From NCBI RefSeq assembly GCF_033095945.1, contig NZ_AP026800.1, forward strand, positions 1,178,001 to 1,242,000: a DNA stretch of 64,000 nt. Reading direction: 5' to 3'. The translations under genes and the position numbers were made by a program. Under the pieces are notes generated by a model that was given only the letters and a program-made list of their open reading frames with translations, searched no databases and was not told the origin of the DNA. Source of the DNA: Bombiscardovia apis. GTDB taxonomy: Bacteria > Actinomycetota > Actinomycetes > Actinomycetales > Bifidobacteriaceae. Below, in pieces: positions 43,191 to 57,217 of this stretch. Position 1 is the stretch's first letter; every line of letters starts with the position of its first letter.

Positions 43191-43751
43191 TATACCCTTA
43201 TAGGCAGCAAACATGAGGCAGGCAGCTACTGTGCCAGCTGCTATCGCGGCCCAGCGGGGTGTAAACATAAGATGCATGGTATAGCAACCGGCCAAGTAGA
43301 CAACAATCCTCGTTAGCCCCCGCACTCTGTCGGGATGCTTGGAATCCTCAAATATATTGTGAAGTATCCCGTAAATGATGAGGGCTGCAAATATCCAGTA
43401 TCCGAAGAGCTGAGTGGGCCGATACCAATCAGCCAGACGAGCCACACTGCCATGATAGCCCGCATCCGGTAGGGTTTGCGCCAGCCAAATGGCAGTCAGC
43501 CAAGGCACAAGACCCGCGAATACTATCTTGCAGCATAGTTCGAGCATGAAAGATGCGAATCCGGCCCAAACTGTTGCCCTGCTCTTAGTCTCGCTTTCGA
43601 CAGGCTCGGGCAAAATACGGTAGGGTAACGGAGCCTTGGGTTCGCTTGACTCTGGTGAAGCCTCCTGCTCTGCACCATCTGGCTTAATCGCTTCGAGAAA
43701 GTCGAGCAGCTGGTCCTGAAAGCTCTTGCCTCCCTTATCGCTGTTGTCCAA
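43164..43751 (-). CDS. Integral membrane protein, unknown function (host copy)
   Basis: An acidic cytoplasmic N-terminus of about 65 residues is followed by four hydrophobic segments. The frame opens at GTG 43760, but the GGGAGG there fits TTG 43751 (8 nt spacing) better, giving 195 aa. A truncated second copy lies inside the island at 52003-52440. No family recognised. It is the last backbone gene before the island. Confidence 0.7.
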   Translation of the reverse strand: MDNSDKGGKSFQDQLLDFLEAIKPDGAEQEASPESSEPKAPLPYRILPEPVESETKSRATVWAGFASFMLELCCKIVFAGLVPWLTAIWLAQTLPDAGYHGSVARLADWYRPTQLFGYWIFAALIIYGILHNIFEDSKHPDRVRGLTRIVVYLAGCYTMHLMFTPRWAAIAAGTVAACLMFAAYKGIEKLLNRLF

Positions 43752-43920
43752 AGCCCCCACCTCCCCTAGTCTTTACTCTCATTCTAAGCACAGACCGAAT
43801 CACCCAAGTTCCCCGCCCCTGCACAAGCCAATGTATGCCCAGCTGGGCAGAGCATTGTGCAACCACGGTATTGCCAACTTCGAACGCATATATTAGGAGA
43901 ACAGCAAGCACACCAATCCC
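43355..43920. repeat. Direct duplication, host copy A (566 bp)
   Basis: This aligns without gaps at a constant offset of 8689 bp to 52044-52609. It covers the N-terminal two thirds of the membrane-protein gene and its upstream region. More than 90 percent identical by eye; the centre is nearly identical and the edges more diverged. Confidence 0.85.
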
Positions 43921-43968
43921 CACACGCAACACTCATTACTGTCGATACCAGCCCAAGAAGAAAACAAG

Positions 43969-44004: not shown

Positions 44005-44039
44005 GTGCGCCAGACAGGATTCGAACCTGCGACCTGCTG
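44005..44039. repeat. Left attachment repeat (partial tRNA-Arg)
   Basis: Thirty-five bases identical to 57143-57177, covering the acceptor strand, T arm and variable region of tRNA-Arg. It cannot fold as a tRNA on its own. Confidence 0.88.
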
Positions 44040-45496: not shown

Positions 45497-47218
45497 TTAT
45501 TCTGCTCTACCGTGAGATTGAGCCTCGACTAGCTTTTTATAATATTTGCAACGATTCATAAGATCTGAGTGTCTACCAGAATCGAGCACTATTCCATCTT
45601 TAATAACTATAATCCAATCAGCTTCAAGGATGAGAGAGAGTCTGTGGGCTGAATACAAGAGAGTTGTATTTGGGAATCTGTTTCGTATAAGTTCAGATAT
45701 TTCTCCTTCAGCAAGACCGTCTAAACTAGATGTCGGCTCATCCATGAGCAGTAGCTTGGGAGTTCTTATCAAAGCCCGAGCAATAGCTATTCGCTGTTTT
45801 TGTCCACCCGATAACGACAAGCCTGATTCTCCTACATGGCGGTCTAGTAGATTTTCTTGGCTTACGCCGGTAATGCACAAACCAACCTGAGCCAGAGCAA
45901 AGGTGATCTCTTCATCTGTAGCTGTTTGCTTTCCTAATTTAACATTATCTCTGATAGTGCCAGTAAGAATACAAGGTTCTTGCTCAACGAAAGCTACGCA
46001 ATTCCTTAACTCTGAAATATCCAGTTCGGAAAGATTATTGCCATTAATAGTAATTTTCCCACTGGTCGGCATAAAGAATCGTTCCATCAGACCAAGGCAT
46101 GTTGTTTTTCCTCCACCAGATTCTCCAACAAGTGCCGTAATTTTCCCAGCGGGTACGTTAAAACTTACTGCCTTCAAAGAATAATTTTGTCCAAGCGAAT
46201 ATTGATGGTATACATTGTTAAAACTAACAACCGGTGCTTCAATTAGTGTTACCGCGCAAGATCTTGCATCATTTTCTTCCTCTTCCATCATCATGAATTC
46301 GTCAACTCTCTGCGCGCCGACCAAAGCTTGCTGGAATTGACCTACAGCAGAAGCTATCGATGTAGTTGCTGATGAAAAATAGGAAAAGTACATCAGAAAC
46401 ATGACAAGAGTAGCAAATTCCATGCTGCCAGAAGCAACTTGATACGCTCCGTAAAGGATAGCAAGGACATTACCAAGTTGGGATAGGATTTGAGTAATCG
46501 GACCTAAACTGCTATATAGATAGATTAATTTTTTTCCAGAATGGAATGCCTGCGATATCGTATCATAGAGTTTCCTCTTCTCTCCTTCTATAGCATTATA
46601 TGCTTTAAGCATTCTCATTGCAGAAGCTGACTCTTGTATATTTAAAGTCATACCCATTGATGCGTCCTGCACGTCATTTTGCCACTTTTTGATTGGCTTA
46701 GATACAACAAATACACACAATACAGAAATAAAGGATGGAACGATAATTATTGCAAAAAACAGAAGATTGATTTTAACCAAAGCCGTCCCAGATCCTACGA
46801 GCAAAATCGCAGACTGTATGATTCCAAGAAATTGAATGGGAATCGACTTTATCAATGCAGCGTCGCCTGCAATTCTCTGGGAATACCATGCGGGAGGTTT
46901 GACTTCACGATCAAGTAACCGCATACGGAAGAATTTTTCTACCATACGGTTTCGGGTTGAATATACCTTTTGTTCACCTATTTTACCTATTAGAGCCTGC
47001 TGAACGGCAGCTAGCATCGCTCCTAATATTGCGAGAATTCCCAGAATCATCGCAATATTGGTTACAGATATCTTCTGCTGTACTCCAGCTATTAAACACC
47101 CACTCAGCGTGGGCTGCGCTAGAGTTAAAATCTGGTTTATCACCCCCAATATTAGGCAGAAAAAATATATGCCTGCATGTCCTTCAATGTACTTCCATAT
47201 AGAATGAGAATTCTTCAT
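45497..47218 (-). CDS. ABC exporter, fused membrane and ATPase domains
   Basis: This half-transporter of 573 aa has six hydrophobic segments in residues 15-310, then an ATPase with Walker A GESGGGKTT, LSLSGGQKQRIAIARAL and LLLMDEPTSSLDG. There is no N-terminal C39 peptidase, so the leader must be removed by another protease. ATG 47218 follows AGGAG at 6 nt. Context makes it the likely exporter, or self-protection pump, for the cluster's peptide. The AT-rich codon use differs from the backbone. Confidence 0.9.
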   Translation of the reverse strand: MKNSHSIWKYIEGHAGIYFFCLILGVINQILTLAQPTLSGCLIAGVQQKISVTNIAMILGILAILGAMLAAVQQALIGKIGEQKVYSTRNRMVEKFFRMRLLDREVKPPAWYSQRIAGDAALIKSIPIQFLGIIQSAILLVGSGTALVKINLLFFAIIIVPSFISVLCVFVVSKPIKKWQNDVQDASMGMTLNIQESASAMRMLKAYNAIEGEKRKLYDTISQAFHSGKKLIYLYSSLGPITQILSQLGNVLAILYGAYQVASGSMEFATLVMFLMYFSYFSSATTSIASAVGQFQQALVGAQRVDEFMMMEEEENDARSCAVTLIEAPVVSFNNVYHQYSLGQNYSLKAVSFNVPAGKITALVGESGGGKTTCLGLMERFFMPTSGKITINGNNLSELDISELRNCVAFVEQEPCILTGTIRDNVKLGKQTATDEEITFALAQVGLCITGVSQENLLDRHVGESGLSLSGGQKQRIAIARALIRTPKLLLMDEPTSSLDGLAEGEISELIRNRFPNTTLLYSAHRLSLILEADWIIVIKDGIVLDSGRHSDLMNRCKYYKKLVEAQSHGRAE

Positions 47219-47467
47219 CTCGTACTCCTATCCCAAAATACAACATAGGTGGAATCCGGTACCGACTTTACATTGTAGATTCATAGATATCAGAAGGGCT
47301 ATGAAAATCATTTGTGGTGGTCTACCAAACCTTGCTAGACGGTCTTTAGTCTTACTGTCCTTTATCTTGCATAGCACAATTCTCTAAAATAGACAATCCC
47401 AGGAAAGGCATTCCACACTTGTGAAGCTCTGGAATAAGTAACGTGTTGAACAAACCTTCTCGCGTGT

Positions 47468-48616
47468 TTAGACCCACCAACTCAGTACGTTTGACCGTGC
47501 CTTTCTATAATCGACGATTGAGTGAGTATGGCAGTCTCTCTCATTATCTGCAGCTATTGAAAATGAATAACTTAGCACTTTCGAAACGCCAGCCTTGCGG
47601 TAAGCTTCATAAACAGATGATTGCTGAATCTTGTTATCGTCAACTAAATATAGATTTATGGAATCCGCCATAGAACGTGTCCACTCGCAGCCATCTTTAA
47701 TTACAACTTCGGATAGCAGGATTAGATTTGCGTTAACCTTGTATCTTTCTACTGCTCCAGTAATTAGCTCTTCTATAGCTATTTTCGAACCATAACAGGC
47801 AGACATGCCCAGAGAAAGCAAATGACCCGTACTGCTCAGTAAAGGTACTCCAGCAGCAATAATATCTCGCGTAATATCTACTCCATCTTCTCCGCCGTCA
47901 CCAACGATCGGATAGCATAACTCGGCAGGCACCGGCAAAAGAGGGGGGTTCGCACAAATTAAATCAAATGTATCGCCAGATAACGCACTTGAGCTGTCCC
48001 TAATACTTGTGTTCAAAACGCGATATTGCGCTTCAAGACCATTCAGAACGGCATTACACCGCGCAAGCTCAGCAGCAACTGGGTTGATTTCAACTCCTGT
48101 TACACTTGAACAACCCATTTTCGCGCAAACAAGTCCTTGTATACCGGGACCTGAACAATAATCGAGAACTCGTTTACCAAAACCGCAATATGCTGGTAAT
48201 CTTGTCACAAGAGCTTCCGAATCAGTGCCATAATATAAGGGCTGACGCCCATTGGGAAAATCAGCAAAATAGAGTAGTCCATGAATTGCATATAGACAGA
48301 GACCGTTCAGATAAATTCTGTCATTCTCAATCGTCACCAATCCTGCTGTCTGAAGTTCGCGAAAGGGTTCAATTGTTTCTAAGATCGAATCGTCAATGAC
48401 AATATTTCCCCCGTATAGCAATAAGGAGCATATTTTTTGAAGATTAGCGGGAAGAGATCTTATCAGCGGCAGTAATTCTATTGAGGCATCGTTTGTAGGA
48501 GAAACTGAGGATGTTAAATCTATATAACCAGCATTTTCCAGAGCTTCAAATATCTTTCTCCCTGCAGCGGAAGGAATGGCGTTATGATCAAATATTCTTA
48601 GCAATCTCTGTACCAT
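47468..48616 (-). CDS. SAM-dependent methyltransferase with NPP motif
   Basis: The 382-aa protein has an N-terminal helical region (about 1-130), then a class I fold with LDYCSGPGIQGLVCAKMG (motif I) and CANPPLLPVPAEL (motif IV). NPP-type enzymes such as HemK/PrmC methylate amide or amino nitrogens. Here motif IV is NPPL. Next to an Asn-rich candidate precursor this suggests N-methylation of Asn side chains, as inferred for proteusin pathways; that is inference only. It lies 1 bp after the radical SAM gene, so the two are co-expressed. Confidence 0.82.
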   Translation of the reverse strand: MVQRLLRIFDHNAIPSAAGRKIFEALENAGYIDLTSSVSPTNDASIELLPLIRSLPANLQKICSLLLYGGNIVIDDSILETIEPFRELQTAGLVTIENDRIYLNGLCLYAIHGLLYFADFPNGRQPLYYGTDSEALVTRLPAYCGFGKRVLDYCSGPGIQGLVCAKMGCSSVTGVEINPVAAELARCNAVLNGLEAQYRVLNTSIRDSSSALSGDTFDLICANPPLLPVPAELCYPIVGDGGEDGVDITRDIIAAGVPLLSSTGHLLSLGMSACYGSKIAIEELITGAVERYKVNANLILLSEVVIKDGCEWTRSMADSINLYLVDDNKIQQSSVYEAYRKAGVSKVLSYSFSIAADNERDCHTHSIVDYRKARSNVLSWWV

Positions 48617-48617
48617 A

Positions 48618-49718
48618 TTAACGTACCGCTTCCTTCATGATTTTCATAGCTGCTGTATCAGCAAGAATTTGATTAAGATTCGCGTAAAGGATTTGTAACA
48701 AATCATTATTAGTCGTTACTTCTTCGCAGAGTTCACACACAGGGTGAAATTTCTGTCGGATAAACTCATTATCGGTTCCTGTCGCTAGTTGATAAAGGTA
48801 AGCAGGACCCAACACGCCTATAGCATTTAAAAGTGCTTGCTGCTCGCTACTAGGGCGGGGGATATCAACCCCACCAGTTTTTTTAAAAACTCTTCCCAAC
48901 GATAGTACGTTGTTCCCCTCAGCATTTATTCCGCAGCAAACTCCTCCTGTTCCATCAGCCATTAGTGTAATTGGTCTAAAAATCCCGTTGCATCCACCGA
49001 AGAGCCCAACACCAGATTGATTATCTTCGAAATATTGGTTTTTAAGTCTGCGGCCTCTTCCTAGCCTAGCGATTTTTGTGTTGGATATTCCGTAAACAGT
49101 TCCATCGGCCGATCTATCAGGCAATTGGCTCCTGCCATTACTTTCCTCAAAAATGAGTGAACCAGGTTCTCCCAGAAACTCCTTGAGCATATCTGCTGTG
49201 ACTTTACTGCGAGGACCTCTGCACACAGCAATAAGAACAGTTTCGAACCCTTTGTGTTTAGAAGCGTTCCATGCGCGCTTAACATTATCGAGAGGAACCC
49301 ATACTGCATGAAAATCATCAGTTGAAATATTGATTTCAGATAATCCTGCATCTCTCAGGTCATTTATAATTTCTTCCGATTTACTATCATCAGTTGCCCA
49401 GTATGCATTTGTTACAATTCTAGTGCTCAATCCAGTCTCAGAACAGTACGCTATCGCTTCAAGAAGTTCATCACCAAGGAGGGTGGACTCGCCGCCAGTA
49501 AAGACAACCACTTTCAAAGGATTAGAAGAACGCACAAAATCTATATACTCAATTATTTCCGAGCTTGTTAAACGTTCTTTACGCTCGGGACCAGATTTCA
49601 TTAAGCAATGAGCGCAACGAATAGGGCATTCATCTGTAGTTGCTATAGCGAGTTCATATACAAACTTATTGGAATAAAGACGCAAATTATCATGTTCACC
49701 ACCAGTGGAAACTACCAT
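48618..49718 (-). CDS. Radical SAM peptide-modifying enzyme
   Basis: The cluster-binding CPIRCAHC (Cys-x3-Cys-x2-Cys) lies near residue 30, followed by VVFTGGES. The C-terminal part has extra cysteines in GGCNGIF, GGVCCG and CELCEE, consistent with a SPASM/twitch-type auxiliary iron-sulfur site. The length is 367 codons from ATG 49718, set by AAGGAGG; the frame is open to a GTG at 49733. It could epimerise, cross-link or methylate the precursor; the subfamily cannot be told by eye. Confidence 0.88.
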   Translation of the reverse strand: MVVSTGGEHDNLRLYSNKFVYELAIATTDECPIRCAHCLMKSGPERKERLTSSEIIEYIDFVRSSNPLKVVVFTGGESTLLGDELLEAIAYCSETGLSTRIVTNAYWATDDSKSEEIINDLRDAGLSEINISTDDFHAVWVPLDNVKRAWNASKHKGFETVLIAVCRGPRSKVTADMLKEFLGEPGSLIFEESNGRSQLPDRSADGTVYGISNTKIARLGRGRRLKNQYFEDNQSGVGLFGGCNGIFRPITLMADGTGGVCCGINAEGNNVLSLGRVFKKTGGVDIPRPSSEQQALLNAIGVLGPAYLYQLATGTDNEFIRQKFHPVCELCEEVTTNNDLLQILYANLNQILADTAAMKIMKEAVR

Positions 49719-49738
49719 GTTTCCTCCTTCCACGTGTT

Positions 49739-49767
49739 ATAATATTATGGGGTCAGAATGCTGCCAA
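49739..49767 (-). promoter_or_regulatory. Promoter of the radical SAM-methyltransferase unit
   Basis: TTGGCA (49762-49767), a 17-nt spacer and TATTAT (49739-49744) lie immediately before the Shine-Dalgarno of the radical SAM gene. The predicted 5' leader is very short. Confidence 0.6.
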
Positions 49768-49833
49768 TTACCGGAATTGAATCTTTTATAATAGGAACCA
49801 TCCGTCAACTAACTCTAGATCATAGATTCTTAT

Positions 49834-50436
49834 CTATTGTTCAATTCGTTGCAGAGTCGATGATTCTGGCGACTTTTCCTCATTAACGACACCGTCGACT
49901 AGTACTAATCCTTCAGATACTCGCTCAATGTCAAACGAAATTTGAAATTCTTGAAACTGTCCCTTTTTACCAAGCGCTTGCTTCCGCAGAGTACTACGCA
50001 CTATAGCTCGTTCTCGGCTTTCACTTAACCCTCTACTCTCGAAGAGCTTATGTAAATCTGAATTTAGATATTGCTCAGAGAAGGTGATGGGGAGCTGGAC
50101 CCGATCAGACATTTCAACACCAGGGTTGCCATATCCGTTTGCATTAACACGATAGTTAGCATTAGCCCCATAGTGAAGATTAGCACCCCACCATGCATTA
50201 GCCACCCAGTTGACATTTGCTGCAAGATTGAAATTAGCCACTACATTCGCCAAGATACCCCAAAATGGCTGAATCTCTGGTTTTTCATCTACTGCAGCAG
50301 GAGCTTTACTTTCTACAGGTTTTAACCCCGTCAGCGCTGACTCTAGCACAACAAGTCGCATACCTTCTGGCGCAGTCATAAGATAATCACTCAGATAAGT
50401 CAAATCTTCACTGTTATCAGTTAATCTGAAATCCAA
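49834..50436 (-). CDS. Candidate RiPP precursor with Asn-rich hexapeptide repeats (main frame)
   Basis: The 200-codon frame is openable at TTG 50436 but has no ribosome binding site. Residues 69-104 are six hexads of consensus x-N-aromatic-x-Ala-Asn, for example VNWVAN, AWWGAN and LHYGAN. Asn occurs at 68, 74, 80, 86, 92, 98 and 104, and aromatics at 77, 83, 89 and 95. A helical, acidic leader-like region precedes and about 95 charged residues follow. I judge it the substrate of the neighbouring radical SAM and methyltransferase enzymes. The true 5' end is probably the 39-codon frame at 50448-50567, separated by one missing base. Confidence 0.6.
   Translation of the reverse strand: MDFRLTDNSEDLTYLSDYLMTAPEGMRLVVLESALTGLKPVESKAPAAVDEKPEIQPFWGILANVVANFNLAANVNWVANAWWGANLHYGANANYRVNANGYGNPGVEMSDRVQLPITFSEQYLNSDLHKLFESRGLSESRERAIVRSTLRKQALGKKGQFQEFQISFDIERVSEGLVLVDGVVNEEKSPESSTLQRIEQ
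50125..50232 (-). repeat. Six tandem hexapeptide-encoding units
   Basis: Coding for residues 69-104 of the candidate precursor. The units are conserved at the protein level (Asn at positions 2 and 6) more than at the DNA level, which suggests selection rather than recent slippage. Confidence 0.75.
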
Positions 50437-50447
50437 GTCTACTGCTT

Positions 50448-50567
50448 TTAAGAAGTTCGAGGGATCTTGCTCGAACTTATTTTAGCCTGATCATCAGTTA
50501 AAATTAATTCCCGTATTTCTCGTAGAGACTCTACTATATCCCGTGAACTGTCTGATTTTACATTCAT
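50448..50567 (-). pseudogene. Probable 5' part of the precursor gene, split by a frameshift
   Basis: ATG 50567 has the best ribosome binding site of the region (AGGAGG, 6 nt). The 39-aa frame (MNVKSDSSRDIVESLREIRE...) ends at 50448. In the frame of the 200-aa protein, uninterrupted codons run back to the A-run at 50480-50483 and read NKFEQDPSNFLKAVDLDF. One extra A there would fuse the two into a 244-aa protein. Either a deletion, a sequencing error or programmed slippage explains this. Confidence 0.6.
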
Positions 50568-50647
50568 TGCAATCCTCCTGTGTAAAAGTTCCAGCGGTAC
50601 AGCCCTTCTTCGCACTTTCTACCAGCACAACAGTCTAAGCATAGCTC

Positions 50648-50653
50648 ATTATA
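50648..50653 (-). promoter_or_regulatory. Possible -10 box of the precursor gene
   Basis: A perfect TATAAT on the minus strand about 80 nt before ATG 50567. The -35 region at 17-18 nt is poor. Confidence 0.35.
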
Positions 50654-50771
50654 CGCTAATCGCGAAATTGGATTACTGCTTTACTACTGGCCATACTGGG
50701 TTTCTGAACCGATTAAAAATAAAAGAATTCTTCGATATACTTATTAGTAAACCATCAACGGCAGAGGTGTT

Positions 50772-51455
50772 ATGAAATCGAAAATTAATGCTTGCAGTAT
50801 CGCAACATTGGCTTGGTCAACTATTGTGTTGCTTTTCGCTGTGCTTAAATTCCGAGAATCGAGCGGTCCCGTAGCTTTACATTGGAATATGCACGGAGAG
50901 GTAGATCGTTGGGGCTCGATTAATGAAACACTTGTAATACCAATTTCCCTGTTCATTTTAACTCTCTCCGGCATATCTATTCAGCCAGTCTTAAAAGAGA
51001 CACAAAAAAATAGTGTAATTACAGACGTAATTACACTAATCCTTCTCGGATCGGATGGTTACCTTGGCGCTCTTTGCACTGGCTTATCAAGTGCGCATAC
51101 TGATCCCAATAATAGAATATGGCTAAACTCAGGTAATATTTTCTTACTAGTTGTTTCGACATCTTTTCTATATTTTGCCTATAGTGCGTCAAGATCTCGA
51201 CGAGTTGTAATGCCTGGGGTTAACGGGGTCGGTACCTGTCTCTTCGATTTACGGTCGAAAAAGATCCGTACATTCTGGAGCGTTTCGCTGTTAGTAAGCG
51301 GTGTCGTCGGAATAATCTTATGTTTCATTTACTCAGCAAATGACCCAGTTTTGTCCATTGCTGGTGGCATTCCTGGTCTCTGTATATCAATACTCCTCTT
51401 CGCAAGTGTACTCATTACGATTGCACTTTCAAATACTGTTTTAGACAAATACTAA
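50772..51455 (+). CDS. SdpI/DUF1648-like membrane protein, possible immunity factor
   Basis: The 227-aa polytopic protein has an N-terminal DUF1648-type motif (PVALHWNMHGEVDRWGS) between the first two membrane segments; about six segments in all. The SdpI family protects Bacillus subtilis against its own SdpC toxin. Lying divergent from the candidate precursor, it fits self-immunity; that role is inferred. ATG 50772 follows GAGG. The reading frame is intact, unlike several neighbours. Confidence 0.75.
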   Translation: MKSKINACSIATLAWSTIVLLFAVLKFRESSGPVALHWNMHGEVDRWGSINETLVIPISLFILTLSGISIQPVLKETQKNSVITDVITLILLGSDGYLGALCTGLSSAHTDPNNRIWLNSGNIFLLVVSTSFLYFAYSASRSRRVVMPGVNGVGTCLFDLRSKKIRTFWSVSLLVSGVVGIILCFIYSANDPVLSIAGGIPGLCISILLFASVLITIALSNTVLDKY

Positions 51456-51693
51456 GCCTAAGACTAGTCCATTATTTTATTCTCTTGTTACTTAACAAAT
51501 TGGTTTACGTAAGTCATTTCCGTCGTACAGGGTTTATTCAGGTCTAGAGTCGTCGTTAGATGGATTGATTGCGTTTGGGTTCAGCTTCGTAAGCGTTGTT
51601 ATTCTCTTTGGTTACTATAGAGGAGGACATCTCTGCAAGTGTGTGTTGGATTGATGCCACAGTAGAAGCTTATTGAAAGAGGCAGAGTTACCG

Positions 51694-51880
51694 ACCTCCA
51701 TCTGAGTCTTCACCCATGAGAGTTAAGATGACACCGGCTAGGATTTGTGCAGGTATGAGCTGTTCAGATGCTCAGCTCGATCGTTGTCCGCGGGTATCAT
51801 CGTGCTTGTATTCTAGGTCGAGCAGATTGGTGTTTGCTGGTAGGCTATAATTGGTGCGCTTATAAAATCAAGGACAACTT
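51694..51880 (-). pseudogene. Fragment of an unidentified coding sequence
   Basis: A minus-strand frame reads plausibly coding peptide (NYSLPANTNLLDLEYKHDD..., then SEQLIPAQILAGVILTLMGE) interrupted by one in-frame TGA. No start codon with a ribosome binding site. The remaining sequence between 51456 and 52043 shows nothing I can support. Confidence 0.3.
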
Positions 51881-52002
51881 AGTTTGTACCGTACTTTAAA
51901 CCTAAAGTTAGACTCCATTGAGAATTCCATGAATGATACAGGCTTGGAGATAATTTACTCCACCATTTTCTGATGATTCTCATTAAATTTTGGCCATTAA
52001 CC

Positions 52003-52440
52003 CTAAATTTTGTGGGATCCGTCAAGCGCACCTTCAGCAATTCTATTGTGGAGTATCCCGTATATGATGAGGTCTGCAAATAGCCAGTATCCGAACAGCT
52101 GAGTGGGCCGATACCAATCAGCCAGACGGGCCAAACTACCGTGGTAGCCCGCAGCCGGTAGGGTTTGCGCCAGCCAAATAGCAGTCAGCCAAGGCACAAG
52201 ACCCGCGAATACTATCTTGCAGCATAGTTCGAGCATGAAAGATGCGAATCCGGCCCAAACTGTTGCCCTGCTCTTAGTCTCGCTTTCGACAGGCTCGGGC
52301 AAAATACGGTAGGGTAACGGAGCCTTGGGTTCGCTTGACTCTTGGCAAGCCTCCTGCTCTGCACCATCCGGCTTAATCGCTTCGAGAAAGTCGAGCAGCT
52401 GGTCTTGAAAGCTCTTGCCTCCCTTATCGCTGTTGTCCAA
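52003..52440 (-). pseudogene. Truncated second copy of the host membrane-protein gene
   Basis: It matches residues 1 to about 134 of the protein encoded at 43164-43751 with only about six differences. It then leaves homology at 52044 and runs 12 unrelated codons to a stop. The last membrane segments are missing, so it is probably non-functional. The homologous TTG start with GGGAGG is preserved at 52440. Confidence 0.75.
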
Positions 52441-52609
52441 AGCCCCCACCTCCCCTAGTCTTTACTCTCATTCTAAGCACAGACCGAATCACCCAAGTTC
52501 CCCCGCCCTTCACAAGCCAATGTATGCCGAACTCGGCAGAGCCTCGTGCAACCATGGTATTGCCAATATCGAACGCATATATCAGGAGATCAACAAATAC
52601 CCCAACACC
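52044..52609. repeat. Direct duplication, island copy B (566 bp)
   Basis: Partner of 43355-43920 in the same orientation. It lies between the exporter/radical SAM half and the PqqD/peptidase/E1 half of the cluster. Confidence 0.85.
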
Positions 52610-52622
52610 ACAGACTAGCGGA

Positions 52623-52644
52623 CACACATTTTGGCGTATACCCG
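52623..52644. repeat. Extra copy of the inverted-repeat motif
   Basis: CACACATTTTGGCGTATA, identical over 18 bases to the right end of the element at 44613-45038, lies 13 bp after duplication copy B, at the junction with the PqqD-like gene side. Confidence 0.6.
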
Positions 52645-52737
52645 CAATACAATGAGGCATACAAAATCGCACCCAACTGTCGCAGAGAGGTAAAGGATAC
52701 ACAACTGCTATCTAGACATTGAGCAATACACCGTACA

Positions 52738-53061
52738 TCAAAAAACTAACAACACGGCTGGTATCTTATCAAATATGTTTTTTCCCTCTGGAGCAACACC
52801 AATCAGCCCATTGCTGGACAATGTTCTTAAAAAGCCTAAGACATCCACAGCGGTTGAAGATTTGCTCTCTATAATTTTTTCTACTTCATAAACAGGTCGA
52901 GTTCCATCCAATAGACGAACAACATCAGCACCTATAGGCGGAATTGCAAGAAAAGTCGAACCTGTCCCCAGAATATACGATCCGTCTTTTTCTTCCGTCA
53001 AACTTAAAGAAGATAGATCAACCCTATCTCCAGCATTTATCTCGGGCTCTGCACCATTCAT
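52738..53061 (-). CDS. PqqD-like RiPP recognition protein
   Basis: The 107-aa protein has the winged-helix pattern of PqqD (TFLAIPPIGADVVRLLDGTR, then a helix and DVLGFLRTLSSNGLIGV). PqqD-type domains bind leader peptides and present them to modifying enzymes, here probably the radical SAM or E1-like enzyme. ATG 53061 overlaps the stop of the peptidase frame (ATGA). The hydrophobic C-terminal tail DKIPAVLLVF may be the start of a lost membrane domain, because the rearranged block begins 130 bp further on. Confidence 0.7.
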   Translation of the reverse strand: MNGAEPEINAGDRVDLSSLSLTEEKDGSYILGTGSTFLAIPPIGADVVRLLDGTRPVYEVEKIIESKSSTAVDVLGFLRTLSSNGLIGVAPEGKNIFDKIPAVLLVF

Positions 53062-53501
53062 AATAAAGACTCCATGAGCTTTTCGGTGAATCTTTCTATC
53101 GCAACCGGTTTTATAGCCGACACGCGAGGGCTTAGATAAGCTAACTCAGAAAGAAGCGATTTATAATTTGGAAACTCTGCATTTAGCGAGCTTTTCTTCA
53201 TTTGTGAATATTGAAAAGCCATGATGCAGATACGAGAGAGATAAAAACTATTAAATGATTTTTCAGACGTATTCCACTGCCGCTTGATCTCCTCTTGCAG
53301 GAATGAAAAATCACTCTCTTGCAATATGTAATATTCATAAGGAGAAGAGAGATAGACATTCGACCCCGGTCCACCGCTACCTTCGAAAACTCTGTCTAAA
53401 TCACGCATAAAGATAGACCAAAAACTTTCAATATCGGCTATCTTCCGCGAACGGTCCAAGTGCAAATCACTTTCAATCCGAAAAGCTGGAAGTTCCGACA
53501 C
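53058..53501 (-). pseudogene. C-terminal part of the M14-like peptidase, separate frame
   Basis: The 147-codon frame can open at GTG 53501 but has no ribosome binding site. Coding-like sequence in this frame continues upstream to about 53620 (AAKQIDWLKKTAGSIPDDIG...). One additional base in the run of five at 53618-53622 would join it to the M14 frame, giving about 400 aa. Its stop overlaps the PqqD-like start, which supports it being the real 3' end. Confidence 0.6.
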
Positions 53502-53581
53502 TATGGAAGAGCTATAGTCTCTAGCGTATTCAAAACTCGCAGCTCCACCGATATCATCGGGAATGGATCCTGCTGTCTTCT

Positions 53582-54259
53582 TTAGCCAATCAATCTGTTT
53601 AGCGGCATAAGGTAGCGAAAAAGCCCCAGGTCTATAACTTCGCTGTATGGCACGGGTGGTTCTTCAGCAATATCAAGTCCAGACAGCTGTAATGCCTTGG
53701 ATAAATCCCTGGCTTTATCATGTAAACCTTGCGATATATAGCAATAAGCATTACCAACAATGCCGTTGTGTAATGAGATCAGACGTTGAGGATGAACTTC
53801 ATCAAGTAAATTCTTGATTATCTCAGTTTCCGGCAAGCTTGAACTGTGCTTATAACCCCCAGATTCGAGTGGGAAATCCCATTCCACTTGCCTGTTTGCA
53901 GCAGGCCTGTACCAGCCGTTCACCATTTCAACTATGCTGTCCGCATTTAGGAACCAGTCTTGATTTCTAATTGCACCATCAATATCCCAAACAGGAATAA
54001 GAAACCAGAATTCATTGCCCTGATTCTGAAACTGCTCCGCCTTACGAGCTATTTGCATCATCATGACTTGAGACAAAGGTTCATTTGGATGTGGAAAACC
54101 CATGATTAAATTCGATACTTCCATCCTAGGAAGCAAAAACGAGATTATGTTTCTCCCCTCGGCACTCTTGCCAAGCACCTTTTCTTTGTAATCGACACCG
54201 AATAATGCAAAAGCGTTTCGAAGCTCCTGAATATAATTGGAAATCCTCATATATGACAT
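53582..54259 (-). CDS. M14-type zinc metallopeptidase, N-terminal part (frameshifted)
   Basis: A carboxypeptidase-like domain: zinc ligands His-x2-Glu in GFPHPNEPLS near residue 76 and a later His in LISLHNGIVG near 163, with DIDGAIRNQDWF between. The 225-aa frame ends in unrelated residues after a run of five T (A on plus, 53618-53622); the catalytic Glu region expected further on would be in the other frame. It may trim leader or follower of the peptide. It directly abuts the E1-like gene (TGAATG). Confidence 0.65.
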   Translation of the reverse strand: MSYMRISNYIQELRNAFALFGVDYKEKVLGKSAEGRNIISFLLPRMEVSNLIMGFPHPNEPLSQVMMMQIARKAEQFQNQGNEFWFLIPVWDIDGAIRNQDWFLNADSIVEMVNGWYRPAANRQVEWDFPLESGGYKHSSSLPETEIIKNLLDEVHPQRLISLHNGIVGNAYCYISQGLHDKARDLSKALQLSGLDIAEEPPVPYSEVIDLGLFRYLMPLNRLIG

Positions 54260-55180
54260 TCAAACCGTCCCTTCAGTTTTGCCGCACACTGGACATGATA
54301 AGGATCGCAACCATTGGCTGGTTGTAGTCGTATAATCATTTCCATTCATCATCAGTGTTTTGCCAATAAGCCCGGGGGTCGCATAACCAGAAACATATCT
54401 AATGACCTCATCAACTGTAACAGCAGAAATTGCCATGCACAGCGGGCCAAATGACGGTGTGACAATATCGGCATTCATCCGAACGGAAGTATTAGTTGTT
54501 GGCAATTGAGCCCTTTGGCATTCATAGCAAGGGGAAAGATAAGGAACAACCAGAGGTCCGGCTAGCCCCATATGCTCAGAGAAACCTGCAAAAATAACCG
54601 GAATTTTTTCCTCAATACAAGCTTCATTGACTACACGCTTTATCAAATCTGGAGGATTATCCATTGTACAGATTACGCAATCGGCACCTTCAATCACTTT
54701 CTTCGCATCCTCAGTCGTATTCATTGCTTTATTTACCGTTCGGACGTGTAGGTCATTCCTGATCTCATTTAGATTTCTCAAAGCTGCTGAAGTCTTAAAA
54801 CTTGAAATATCTTTGTTTCTGTACAGAAACTGTCTGACAAGATTTGTGTCTTCAACTTTGTCACAATCACAAAGAATGAGTCCTTGTATTCCACTATTTG
54901 CTAACTGTAAAGCACAATTAGATCCAATACCGCCAAACCCCATTATTGCAATTGTGGAAGAAGCAAGTTTTTTTGCACAGCTTTGTGCACTTATTCCTGA
55001 ATGAAGGTTCAACATTGAAAAGTACAATTGCTGCCTATTGTACCGATCTGCATTTGATAATTCAGATCTATACACTTCTACATCCACCAATACACCAGCG
55101 TTACAAAGTTGTTGTATCGGCCACAACCATCCCCGAATAGTCGTACCTAACATTATTAACAATAACGAAGTAATTGTCAA
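54260..55180 (-). CDS. E1/ThiF-like adenylating enzyme
   Basis: This is a MoeB/ThiF/MccB-fold protein. It has ADRYNRQQLYF, the nucleotide-binding IMGFGGIGSNCALQLANSG, DNPPDLIKRVVN, and zinc-binding CYEC and CPVC pairs. Such enzymes adenylate a peptide C-terminus or carboxylate, or in azoline-type pathways bind leaders. The only start in this frame after an amber codon is TTG 55180; the real start may be lower. The length is 306 aa. The amber separates it from an in-frame 73-codon stretch upstream. Confidence 0.8.
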   Translation of the reverse strand: MTITSLLLIMLGTTIRGWLWPIQQLCNAGVLVDVEVYRSELSNADRYNRQQLYFSMLNLHSGISAQSCAKKLASSTIAIMGFGGIGSNCALQLANSGIQGLILCDCDKVEDTNLVRQFLYRNKDISSFKTSAALRNLNEIRNDLHVRTVNKAMNTTEDAKKVIEGADCVICTMDNPPDLIKRVVNEACIEEKIPVIFAGFSEHMGLAGPLVVPYLSPCYECQRAQLPTTNTSVRMNADIVTPSFGPLCMAISAVTVDEVIRYVSGYATPGLIGKTLMMNGNDYTTTTSQWLRSLSCPVCGKTEGTV

Positions 55181-55186
55181 TACTAT

Positions 55187-55408
55187 CTAATCAGATTCGA
55201 CCAGCTGACTAATTAATTGAACCGCTTTCCCCATTCCGTCTAAGTCTGGGTTAAGAACTTTGTACGCATAATCGAACGTTTGAATAAAATCACCACGCAT
55301 AACTTCTTCTATTAGTCGCCTAAGCTGCTTCGAATCATCTCCAGCAAAAGTTGGTAGCCCCAGGAAAGACAAACGATTAAAAGCTTCGATTTCATATAGT
55401 TCTCCCAC
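55187..55408 (-). CDS. Short frame upstream of and in frame with the E1-like gene
   Basis: The 73-codon frame from GTG 55408 (MGELYEIEAFNRLSFLGLPT...) ends with TAG at 55187-55189. The reading frame then continues without shift into the E1-like protein. It may be a separate small protein of the cluster or the N-terminal part of a longer E1-like protein cut by a nonsense codon. No ribosome binding site is visible. No family recognised. Confidence 0.4.
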   Translation of the reverse strand: MGELYEIEAFNRLSFLGLPTFAGDDSKQLRRLIEEVMRGDFIQTFDYAYKVLNPDLDGMGKAVQLISQLVESD

Positions 55409-55979: not shown

Positions 55980-56737
55980 TCAGATTTGGAGATCCTGGCC
56001 GATTACCTCCGCCACCTCCCCGGTGCGGTTGGGCCATAGGTCCGCGTAGGTGTCCTGGGTCTCGGTGGCCGAGGCGTGGCCCAGTACGGCCTGGAGGGTC
56101 TTCACGTCCCGCCGGCCTTGATGGCCAGGGAGGCGTAGGTGTGGCGCAGGGAGTGGATGACCAGGCCCTCTATGTCCTTCATGCCAGCGTCCTGCAGGGC
56201 CGGGGCCCACACCCGGTTCCGCCAGTTTGCGGTGTTCTGCCTTCCTCCCCAAGGCCCGCGCAGCAGGTAGTCCTCGGGACCATGCCCGTCCAGCAGGGCT
56301 TCGACCCTGGGCAGCAGCTGGCTGGGAATCGGCACGAACCTGGTCCTGTTTCCCTTCGGCAGAGTCTCCACCAGGAGGTAGTTGGCATCGACCGACTGGG
56401 TGCGCAGGACGTTGATCCGGTTCCGGCCCAGATCCACGTCCCCGCACCGCAGGGCCAGGGCCTCGCCGATGCGCAGTCCCGTGTACGCGAGCAGGTAGAC
56501 GACTGTGGCGTTGGCCTCGTCCATCTGCCCCGCGATGGTTTTGATCTCCTGCGGGGTCAGGTATATTCGCCGTTGGACGGCCCTGTTGTGCGACACTTTC
56601 GCCTTCCCCTGCTCGTCGGCGAACATCGCCAACGAATGCTTCGCGGAGGGCGGGGGCTCCATCTTCGTGCAATGCCCGTCCGCCGTCGTGACCTGGGCGT
56701 ACTTCAGCCACTTGTCGTGTATCCATGCTTTTGACAT
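55980..56737 (-). pseudogene. Tyrosine integrase, frameshifted and probably truncated
   Basis: The first frame (56102-56737, 211 aa) carries the catalytic Arg (YTGLRIGEALAL), Lys region (PKGNRTRFVPIP) and HSLRHTYASLAIKAG. It then ends, and the normal continuation DVKTLQAVLGHASATETQDT with the Tyr nucleophile is in another frame down to 55980. One missing base near 56105-56112 explains the break. The N-terminus has a short DNA-binding-like start but too few residues before the catalytic domain for a full core-binding domain. High GC and position beside the tRNA identify it as the island's integrase. Confidence 0.8.
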
Positions 56738-56828: not shown

Positions 56829-57035
56829 ATGAGCGAAACACAGAAAACGACGAACGACAATCCGGCCGCGACGCCGGCCGAGGCAGCGGAGATCCTCGTG
56901 ATACCAGTGAGCCCGCTGAACGCATGGAGGGCGCAGAGAACCGGGCTTCCGTATGTGCATATAGGGCGCCTGGTCAGATACCGGCCCGAGGATGTTGCGG
57001 ACCTGATACTCCGCAACACGGTACGGCCGGAGTGA
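56829..57035 (+). CDS. Excisionase-like helix-turn-helix protein
   Basis: A 68-aa protein of the MerR/Xis-type HTH group: ATPAEAAEILVIPVSPLNAW, GLPYVHIGRLVRYRPEDVAD. Recombination directionality factor by position next to the integrase. GC-rich like the integrase. ATG 56829 has AGGAAC at 6 nt. A run of ten G (57042-57051) follows six bases after its stop. Confidence 0.75.
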   Translation: MSETQKTTNDNPAATPAEAAEILVIPVSPLNAWRAQRTGLPYVHIGRLVRYRPEDVADLILRNTVRPE

Positions 57036-57142: not shown

Positions 57143-57177
57143 GTGCGCCAGACAGGATTCGAACCTGCGACCTGCTG
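57143..57177. repeat. Right attachment repeat inside tRNA-Arg
   Basis: Thirty-five bases identical to 44005-44039, forming the 3' part of the intact tRNA gene. Confidence 0.88.
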
Positions 57178-57217
57178 ATCCGTAGTCAGCTGCTCTAATC
57201 CACTGGGCTACTGGCGC
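57144..57217 (-). tRNA. tRNA-Arg (anticodon ACG)
   Basis: A 74-nt cloverleaf read on the minus strand. The acceptor is GCGCCAG/CTGGCGC, the anticodon stem GCTGA/TCAGC with loop CTACGGA, and the T arm has GGTTCGAATCC. The 3' CCA is not encoded. The 3' half is supplied by the island. Confidence 0.95.

What the first reader, a model, noticed from the sequence alone, without database searches (positions are those of the whole stretch)
45497..55408. Unclassified RiPP-like biosynthetic cluster on a tRNA island
Seen: one region carries an exporter without C39 peptidase, an NPP-motif methyltransferase, a radical SAM enzyme with extra C-terminal cysteines, an Asn-repeat candidate precursor, a DUF1648/SdpI-like membrane protein, a PqqD-like recognition protein, an M14-type peptidase and an E1/ThiF-like enzyme. 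Known: PqqD, radical SAM and E1-like proteins are typical RiPP tools, but I know no described class with this combination. Inference: a modified membrane-active peptide with its own immunity and export.
Basis: partly seen in the sequence, partly recalled or inferred. Interest (0 to 1): 0.92.

Follow-up and report, generated by a model that had tools for sequence, protein, structure and literature searches.

The report
Mobile cassette for polytheonamide-like pore peptide
A small mobile gene cassette in a bifidobacterium-like genome appears to encode a peptide of the same design as the marine-sponge pore toxin polytheonamide, but built with a different kind of stereochemistry-flipping enzyme, and relatives of it occur in gut, insect, plant and hot-spring bacteria.

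The parts
44005..44039 (+). 35-nt direct repeat, att-like end of the island
   Evidence: identical to 57143-57177, the 3' part of tRNA-Arg(ACG)
45497..47218 (-). ABC exporter (573 aa), no C39 peptidase domain
   Evidence: PF00664 and PF00005 are the only matches over cut-off; two fragments in the second copy L009 are 76% and 72% identical
47468..48616 (-). AerE-like Asn side-chain N-methyltransferase (382 aa)
48618..49733 (-). EpeE/YydG-type radical SAM peptide epimerase (371 aa)
49834..50436 (-). Precursor frame carrying core and follower (frame open from 50481, TTG at 50436)
   Evidence: Asn-ladder core; the part behind the core aligns with precursors of other loci
50119..50268 (-). Predicted core peptide (about 50 residues, 12 Asn, all on one parity, 9 pairs at i/i+6)
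   Evidence: counted on the alignment-defined core; the ends of the mature peptide are inferred
50448..50567 (-). Start of the leader (ATG at 50567 behind AGGAGG), in a different frame from the core
   Evidence: sequence; both frames translated separately
50772..51455 (+). DUF1648/SdpI-like membrane protein, likely immunity
   Evidence: PF07853 27.7 bits, cut-off 28.7; SdpI or DUF1648 over cut-off in 6 of 7 candidate neighbours scanned in relatives
52038..52612 (+). Duplicated piece of the chromosomal flank (43349-43924, 93.4% identical, 576 columns)
   Evidence: blastn of the region against itself
52738..53061 (-). PqqD-like protein (weak match), second unit
   Evidence: PF05402 16.0 bits, cut-off 23.4
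53058..53501 (-). 147-aa protein of unknown family, second unit
   Evidence: no Pfam match; no match in 210 genomes of the family of G071 (no positive control)
53582..54259 (-). M14-type carboxypeptidase-like protein, short, second unit
   Evidence: plasmid proteins annotated M14 match at up to E 8e-17; no Pfam match
54260..55180 (-). E1/ThiF-like adenylating enzyme, second unit
   Evidence: PF00899 156 bits; plasmid matches include the ThiF-family protein of an MccC7 plasmid, 29.7% identity
55187..55408 (-). 73-aa protein of unknown function, second unit
   Evidence: no Pfam match
56102..56737 (-). Tyrosine integrase frame, C-terminally cut; further integrase-like residues in another frame (my reading)
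   Evidence: PF00589 50 bits, profile 2-143 of 172; frames
56829..57035 (+). Excisionase-like HTH protein
   Evidence: PF12728 26.8 bits, cut-off 27
57143..57217 (-). tRNA-Arg(ACG); its 3' part 57143-57177 is the other att-like repeat

Best explanation
The cassette 45497-51455 encodes a RiPP of the polytheonamide/aeronamide design. A precursor with leader, internal core of about 50 residues and C-terminal follower is made. The EpeE-type radical SAM enzyme inverts residues of the core at every second position. The AerE-like methyltransferase then puts methyl groups on the side-chain amides of Asn residues, which all lie on one parity and stack at i/i+6. The peptide winds into a beta-helix of about six residues per turn, held by the Asn ladder, is exported by the ABC transporter, and acts as a membrane channel against other bacteria. 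The SdpI/DUF1648 protein protects the producer. Shown by computation: homology and conserved key positions of both enzymes, the Asn pattern, co-occurrence, signs of mobility. Inferred: the modifications, the helix, the channel, immunity, processing and export. In this strain leader and core frames are split, so the copy may be silent; that is compatible with this reading of the cassette.
For: Asn pattern: 92 of 93 Asn on the majority parity in 10 alignment-defined cores (shuffle mean 57.0, maximum 67) and 67 i/i+6 pairs (shuffle mean 18.3, maximum 31); 0 of 5000 shuffles reached either value. Methyltransferase: the five AerE entries are the top fold matches over nearly the whole length, with Y137/D141/N231 equivalents invariant in 11 of 11. 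Epimerase: EpeE is the top fold match by a wide margin, and the Cys223 position is conserved in 44 of 44. Co-occurrence: AerE-like methyltransferase in 12 of 25 loci with a related radical SAM gene; an Asn-ladder frame within 3.6 kb in each of the 12, none recognised in the 13 others. SdpI/DUF1648 over cut-off in 6 of 7 scanned neighbours in relatives; the seventh, from L041, which has no methyltransferase, is DUF3784. Literature: N-methyl-Asn 16, 22 and 28 form the ladder of polytheonamide B; AerE methylates Asn 25, 31, 37, 41, 43, putative localisation (PMC11285071, passages); PoyD inverts every second position (PMC8326336, passages).
Against: No product is known. EpeE D210 is not kept: the aligned position in the window enzyme is a proline (my reading). 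EpeE itself inverts two separate residues, not every second one (PMC8326336, passages). TIGR04078 scores 88 against a cut-off of 300. One Collinsella Asn is off parity, and Collinsella cores differ by 2 and 3 residues as well as by 6 and 12 (my reading). NA runs inflate the lag counts in some cores, and Ala too prefers one parity (93 of 109). By the crude ladder score, L032-L036 (2-3) do not exceed the chance best of loci without methyltransferase (up to 3, L056); for them the ladder rests on position and on alignment. SdpI-type neighbours were not scanned in L010, L033, L034, L036, L038. Leader and core are in different frames in the window, and the genome's second copy is fragmentary.
Confidence: 0.78

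Rival explanations
1. One reading: one RiPP pathway in which PqqD, E1 and M14 also act on the Asn-repeat precursor.
For: The genes are neighbours on one low-GC island, and PqqD-like and E1-like proteins serve in many RiPP pathways (recalled). M14 could trim a C-terminal follower (inference). The Collinsella locus L040 has an annotated PqqD-family gene 3.6 kb from its precursor, next to a second radical SAM gene.
Against: No match of the five second-unit proteins to ORFs of 60 aa or more in 14 relative loci at E 1e-3, L040 included, and none in the second copy of the same genome, L009; a copied flank piece separates the blocks; E1 has no match in 296 other order genomes at E 1e-35 or 315 other phylum genomes at E 1e-30.
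Confidence: 0.1
2. The cassette is right in kind but dead here: a decayed copy of a once-mobile cluster. (Compatible with the best explanation of the cassette itself.)
For: Leader and core in different frames; second copy fragmentary, with 2 stops in one radical SAM piece; integrase cut; frame breaks also in L035 and L036.
Against: Radical SAM, methyltransferase, exporter and DUF1648 frames are intact, and a genome assembly can carry a small sequencing error.
Confidence: 0.5
3. The radical SAM enzyme does other chemistry on the core (for example crosslinks), and the Asn pattern serves that.
Confidence: 0.1
4. The Asn-rich protein is a structural or low-complexity protein, not a RiPP precursor.
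For: It is long for a precursor, and the Asn region sits in the middle.
Against: Near the two modifying enzymes in all 12 loci that have both, strict parity across distant hosts, and a leader similar to NHLP-type leaders in L010 (26.7 bits, below the cut-off of 40).
Confidence: 0.03

Closest known systems
Polytheonamides and aeronamide (channel-forming proteusins; poy, aer clusters)
   Same: Asn on one parity with i/i+6 ladder; Asn N-methyltransferase of the AerE family (PMC11285071, passages). The relative L010 also has a RiPP C-methyltransferase, TIGR03975 over cut-off.
   Different: [quoted passage not shown] core is internal, with about 90 residues behind it; no C-methyltransferase among the ten island proteins scanned; SdpI/DUF1648 partner.
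Epipeptides (EpeX/EpeE, formerly YydF/YydG)
   Same: Radical SAM epimerase fold and the Cys223 position.
   Different: Precursor, Asn ladder, methyltransferase and immunity type differ; only two inversions in epipeptides (PMC8326336, passages).
Polytheonamide-like cluster of Candidatus Caria hoplita (PMC7157528, passages)
   Same: [quoted passage not shown]
   Different: That cluster has a PoyD-like epimerase.
SDP toxin and SdpI immunity of Bacillus
   Same: SdpI-family protein beside a peptide gene; the L009 precursor has a weak SdpC match, 14 bits against a cut-off of 99.
   Different: SDP is not a radical SAM product (recalled); the SdpC match is far below cut-off.
Microcin C7 MccB (for the second unit only)
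   Same: E1/ThiF enzyme, 29.7% identity to the ThiF-family protein of plasmid MccC7-H22.
   Different: PqqD-like and M14-like neighbours instead of the MFS, methyltransferase and GNAT genes there; not part of the cassette.

Membership tests
Channel-forming proteusins (polytheonamide/aeronamide) | Core Asn on alternate positions with i/i+6 spacing | tested here: met
   12 of 12 Asn in the window core, 92 of 93 over ten cores, 0 of 5000 shuffles as extreme
Channel-forming proteusins (polytheonamide/aeronamide) | Asn side-chain N-methyltransferase of the PoyE/AerE family | tested here: met
   [not shown]
Channel-forming proteusins (polytheonamide/aeronamide) | PoyD-type epimerase (single cluster, C-terminal RRE) | tested here: not met
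   EpeE-type enzyme with invariant C248, C266, C267, C333, C336; no PoyD sequence was at hand, the contrast is from PMC8326336 (passages)
Channel-forming proteusins (polytheonamide/aeronamide) | Nitrile-hydratase-like (NHLP) leader | tested here: inconclusive
   no match for the window core frame, which lacks the leader start; L010 precursor 26.7 bits with NF038399, cut-off 40
Channel-forming proteusins (polytheonamide/aeronamide) | Core at the C-terminal end of the precursor (recalled) | tested here: not met
   about 90 residues follow the core; similar in the nine aligned relatives except L043, whose tail is shorter
Channel-forming proteusins (polytheonamide/aeronamide) | Mature beta-helical channel | not testable with these tools
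   needs the product
Epipeptide epimerases (EpeE/YydG) | EpeE fold with Cys223-equivalent hydrogen donor | tested here: met
   D210 equivalent not kept
Epipeptide epimerases (EpeE/YydG) | Match to TIGR04078 over its cut-off | tested here: not met
   88.1 bits, cut-off 300, N-terminal part only
Epipeptides | Epipeptide-type precursor with two target residues | tested here: not met
   Asn-ladder core with a long C-terminal part instead; no epipeptide precursor was aligned
DUF5969 (PF19394) | Pfam match in the part behind the core | tested here: not met
   window precursor no match; L038 82.7 and L040 32.8 bits over the cut-off of 25, L034 14.8 below it, none in L039, L043, L032, L009
SdpI/DUF1648 proteins | Pfam match over cut-off | tested here: inconclusive
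   27.7 bits against 28.7 in the window; L009 50.1 and L040 48.2 over it
Microcin C7 (MccB) for the second unit | MccB-like E1 with an MccA-type heptapeptide | tested here: inconclusive
   E1 29.7% identical to the MccC7-plasmid protein; no heptapeptide gene was searched for

The most novel reading that the evidence does not exclude
A second, widespread lineage of beta-helical channel RiPPs exists that uses an EpeE-type instead of a PoyD-type epimerase. It travels as a small cassette (SdpI or DUF1648 immunity, precursor with internal Asn-ladder core and often a DUF5969-type follower, epimerase, AerE-like methyltransferase, often an exporter) on tRNA islands and plasmids. It joins the toolkits of two RiPP families whose epimerases were said to share no homology, and it gives functions to DUF5969 and to a group of SdpI proteins.
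Probability: 0.6. Interest if true: 0.9.

Novelty: new variant of a known kind. Interest (0 to 1): 0.82.

Why it matters
Polytheonamide-type channels are known from a sponge symbiont and a few other bacteria. The same design in a bifidobacterium-like host and in Collinsella, with a different epimerase, would be independent evidence that the Asn ladder is the essential part. It would bring such peptides into culturable hosts, and it would make testable how SdpI-type proteins protect against a channel. It would also mean an EpeE-type enzyme that makes many inversions in one substrate.

Tried and rejected
One cluster with E1, PqqD and M14: rejected on lack of matches in 14 relative loci and the duplicated piece. 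An empty search with the 147-aa protein in 210 genomes shows little, since no positive control is known.

The precursor search with the window frame alone found only itself. The alignment search found 61 proteins at E 0.01, mostly near-identical Collinsella or Thermus types, among only the 7997 candidates that shared most words; three of them were used and none.

A parity count on the Asn-richest 40 residues (13 precursors) picked the wrong region in L033 (behind the core) and mixed Asn from before the core into L034; those two gave p 0.34 and 0.09 for parity. It was replaced by the alignment-defined core. The crude ladder score reaches 3 by chance in L056, 5.6 kb from the radical SAM gene, so for L032-L036 (scores 2-3) the ladder rests on position and alignment; in L035 the score picked a frame inside the radical SAM gene, and the ladder piece there is.

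Viral contigs: 2 weak loci, no methyltransferase. Genome contigs with the single protein: 1 weak locus, no methyltransferase.

Literature: searches for an earlier description showed none in the listings; only passages of PMC11285071, PMC8326336 and PMC7157528 were read. Listed and not opened: among others PMC9259500, PMC12858407, PMC5808125, PMC8183687. Subscription papers are not covered, so an earlier description cannot be excluded.
Full report
WHAT IS THERE. The window lies in a 1.94-Mb genome held as one contig. Phosphoketolase genes (the family also rings in 4 of 14 control genomes), the size and the kinship listing suggest Bifidobacteriaceae; the name is not known (inference). Between 44005 and 57177 the GC content drops from about 53-57% to 41-45% (the right end, with the integrase, is back at 54%). 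The two ends are exact 35-nt copies of the 3' part of tRNA-Arg, with a truncated integrase and an excisionase-like gene at the right end. It is therefore read as an integrated island.

TWO UNITS. The left unit (45497-51455) holds exporter, methyltransferase, radical SAM enzyme, precursor and, on the other strand, a DUF1648 protein. The right unit (52738-55408) holds PqqD-like, 147-aa, M14-like, E1 and 73-aa proteins. Between them lies a copy (93.4%, 576 columns) of the chromosomal piece 43349-43924. None of the five right-unit proteins matched ORFs of 60 aa or more in 14 relative loci at E 1e-3, whereas the radical SAM protein matched in all 14 and the methyltransferase in 11. One of these loci, L040, has an annotated PqqD-family gene beside a second radical SAM gene; it did not match the window's PqqD-like protein.

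SECOND COPY. The same genome carries a second, decayed version at 970-989 kb (L009): exporter fragments 76% and 72% identical, a DUF1648 protein over cut-off (50.1 bits), a precursor of 218 aa, and broken radical SAM and methyltransferase genes. It sits beside a tRNA-Pro whose last 35 nt are repeated 9.5 kb away. Two insertions at two different tRNA genes point to a mobile cassette (inference).

PRECURSOR. Ten precursors (window, L009, L010, L032, L033, L034, L038, L039, L040, L043; the broken frames of L035 and L036 left out) were aligned. In fixed alignment columns, 92 of 93 Asn lie on the majority parity of their core; there are 67 pairs at i/i+6 and 5 pairs at distances 1, 3, 5 or 7. Of 5000 shuffles none reached these values (means 57.0 and 18.3 for parity and i/i+6). 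The L009, L032 and L033 cores are not NA runs and still show the six-residue spacing (4, 3 and 2 pairs; none at distance 2). Ala also prefers one parity (93 of 109), partly the mirror of the Asn pattern. Among Collinsella precursors, core lengths differ by 6, 12, 2 and 3 residues (P0143, P0134, P0140, P0130, my reading): two of four are whole turns. The part behind the core matches DUF5969 over cut-off in L038 and L040, not in the window.

CO-OCCURRENCE. In 25 loci with a related radical SAM gene, 12 have the AerE-like methyltransferase: window, L009, L010, L032-L036, L038-L040, L043. Each of the 12 has an Asn-ladder frame within 3.6 kb of the radical SAM gene, in eight of them within 350 nt. 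In the 13 others (L011, L018, L019, L037, L041, L042, L055-L061) no such frame was recognised; their best crude scores were 1-3, against 2-11 in the twelve, so the score alone does not separate L032-L036. Named carriers of the cassette are plasmid records of Rhizobium leguminosarum, Klebsiella sp. PL-2018, Collinsella aerofaciens and Thermus aquaticus. The radical SAM protein of L034 is 96.8% identical to one named from Actinomyces wuliandei; one from Mobiluncus mulieris is listed, but its surroundings were not seen. Within the sampled genomes the family is rare: 4 of 396 of the order at E 1e-30, of which two (own genome and G050) full length; 10 of 213 of the family of G071, of which five at E 1e-70 or better; 3 of 396 of the phylum, own genome included.

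HOW IT WOULD WORK. Polytheonamide B owes its helix to N-methylated Asn stacked at 16, 22 and 28, and AerE methylates Asn 25, 31, 37, 41, 43, a putative localisation (PMC11285071, passages). PoyD inverts every second residue (PMC8326336, passages). The window core fits that plan: about 50 residues, a hydrophobic start, and Asn at one parity. So the EpeE-type enzyme would invert alternate residues, the methyltransferase would cap the Asn ladder, and the product would be a membrane channel. The SdpI/DUF1648 protein would be the immunity factor: such proteins were found over cut-off in L009, L032, L035, L039, L040 and L043; five cassette loci were not scanned for it. These steps are inferred.

STATE IN THIS STRAIN. 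The leader begins at an ATG behind a good ribosome-binding site (50567) but runs into a stop at 50448-50450; a leader-like motif and the core lie in another frame that is open from 50481. Either the gene is broken, or the assembly has an error, or translation recovers. Breaks also occur in L035 and L036 and, judged by protein starts, in several Collinsella sequences.

WHAT IS KNOWN. [quoted passage not shown] A sponge-symbiont cluster with a GANANA-repeat core uses a PoyD-like epimerase (PMC7157528, passages). I saw no description of the EpeE plus AerE combination in the listings; most listed papers were not opened and subscription papers are not held. I file it as a new variant of the channel-forming kind, not as a member of the proteusins proper, since the PoyD and terminal-core features are not met.

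Noticed in passing
L009:3563-13130: Second decayed copy of the cassette on an island bounded by tRNA-Pro and a 35-nt repeat of its 3' end.
   Followed up: partly
window:43349-43924 and 52038-52612: A chromosomal flank piece is duplicated inside the island, as if two islands had been stacked at one site.
   Followed up: partly
L035:8636-9060, L036:6285-6929, P0136-P0140: Breaks of the precursor reading frame recur within or near the leader in several hosts; decay, error or switching cannot be told apart.
   Followed up: no
P0157-P0180: Collinsella proteins that keep the leader but carry an unrelated stretch in place of core and follower.
   Followed up: no
L039:11100-18624: The Klebsiella plasmid cassette continues on the same strand with an RTX-type acyltransferase (HlyC, 58 bits), HlyD, a peptidase-domain ABC transporter and a hydrolase; possible acylation of the peptide.
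   Followed up: no
L010:5217-7145: This relative adds a RiPP radical SAM C-methyltransferase (TIGR03975 over cut-off), as in polytheonamide pathways.
   Followed up: no
L040:3706-5840: Collinsella has a separate PqqD plus radical SAM pair next to the cassette.
   Followed up: no
L052:4262-7197: A plasmid with a ThiF-family gene and an M14-like gene side by side, a possible relative of the second unit.
   Followed up: no
L041:6446-6985, L042:6100-6963: EpeE-like enzymes beside Ala/Val-rich proteins without Asn ladder and without the methyltransferase.
   Followed up: no
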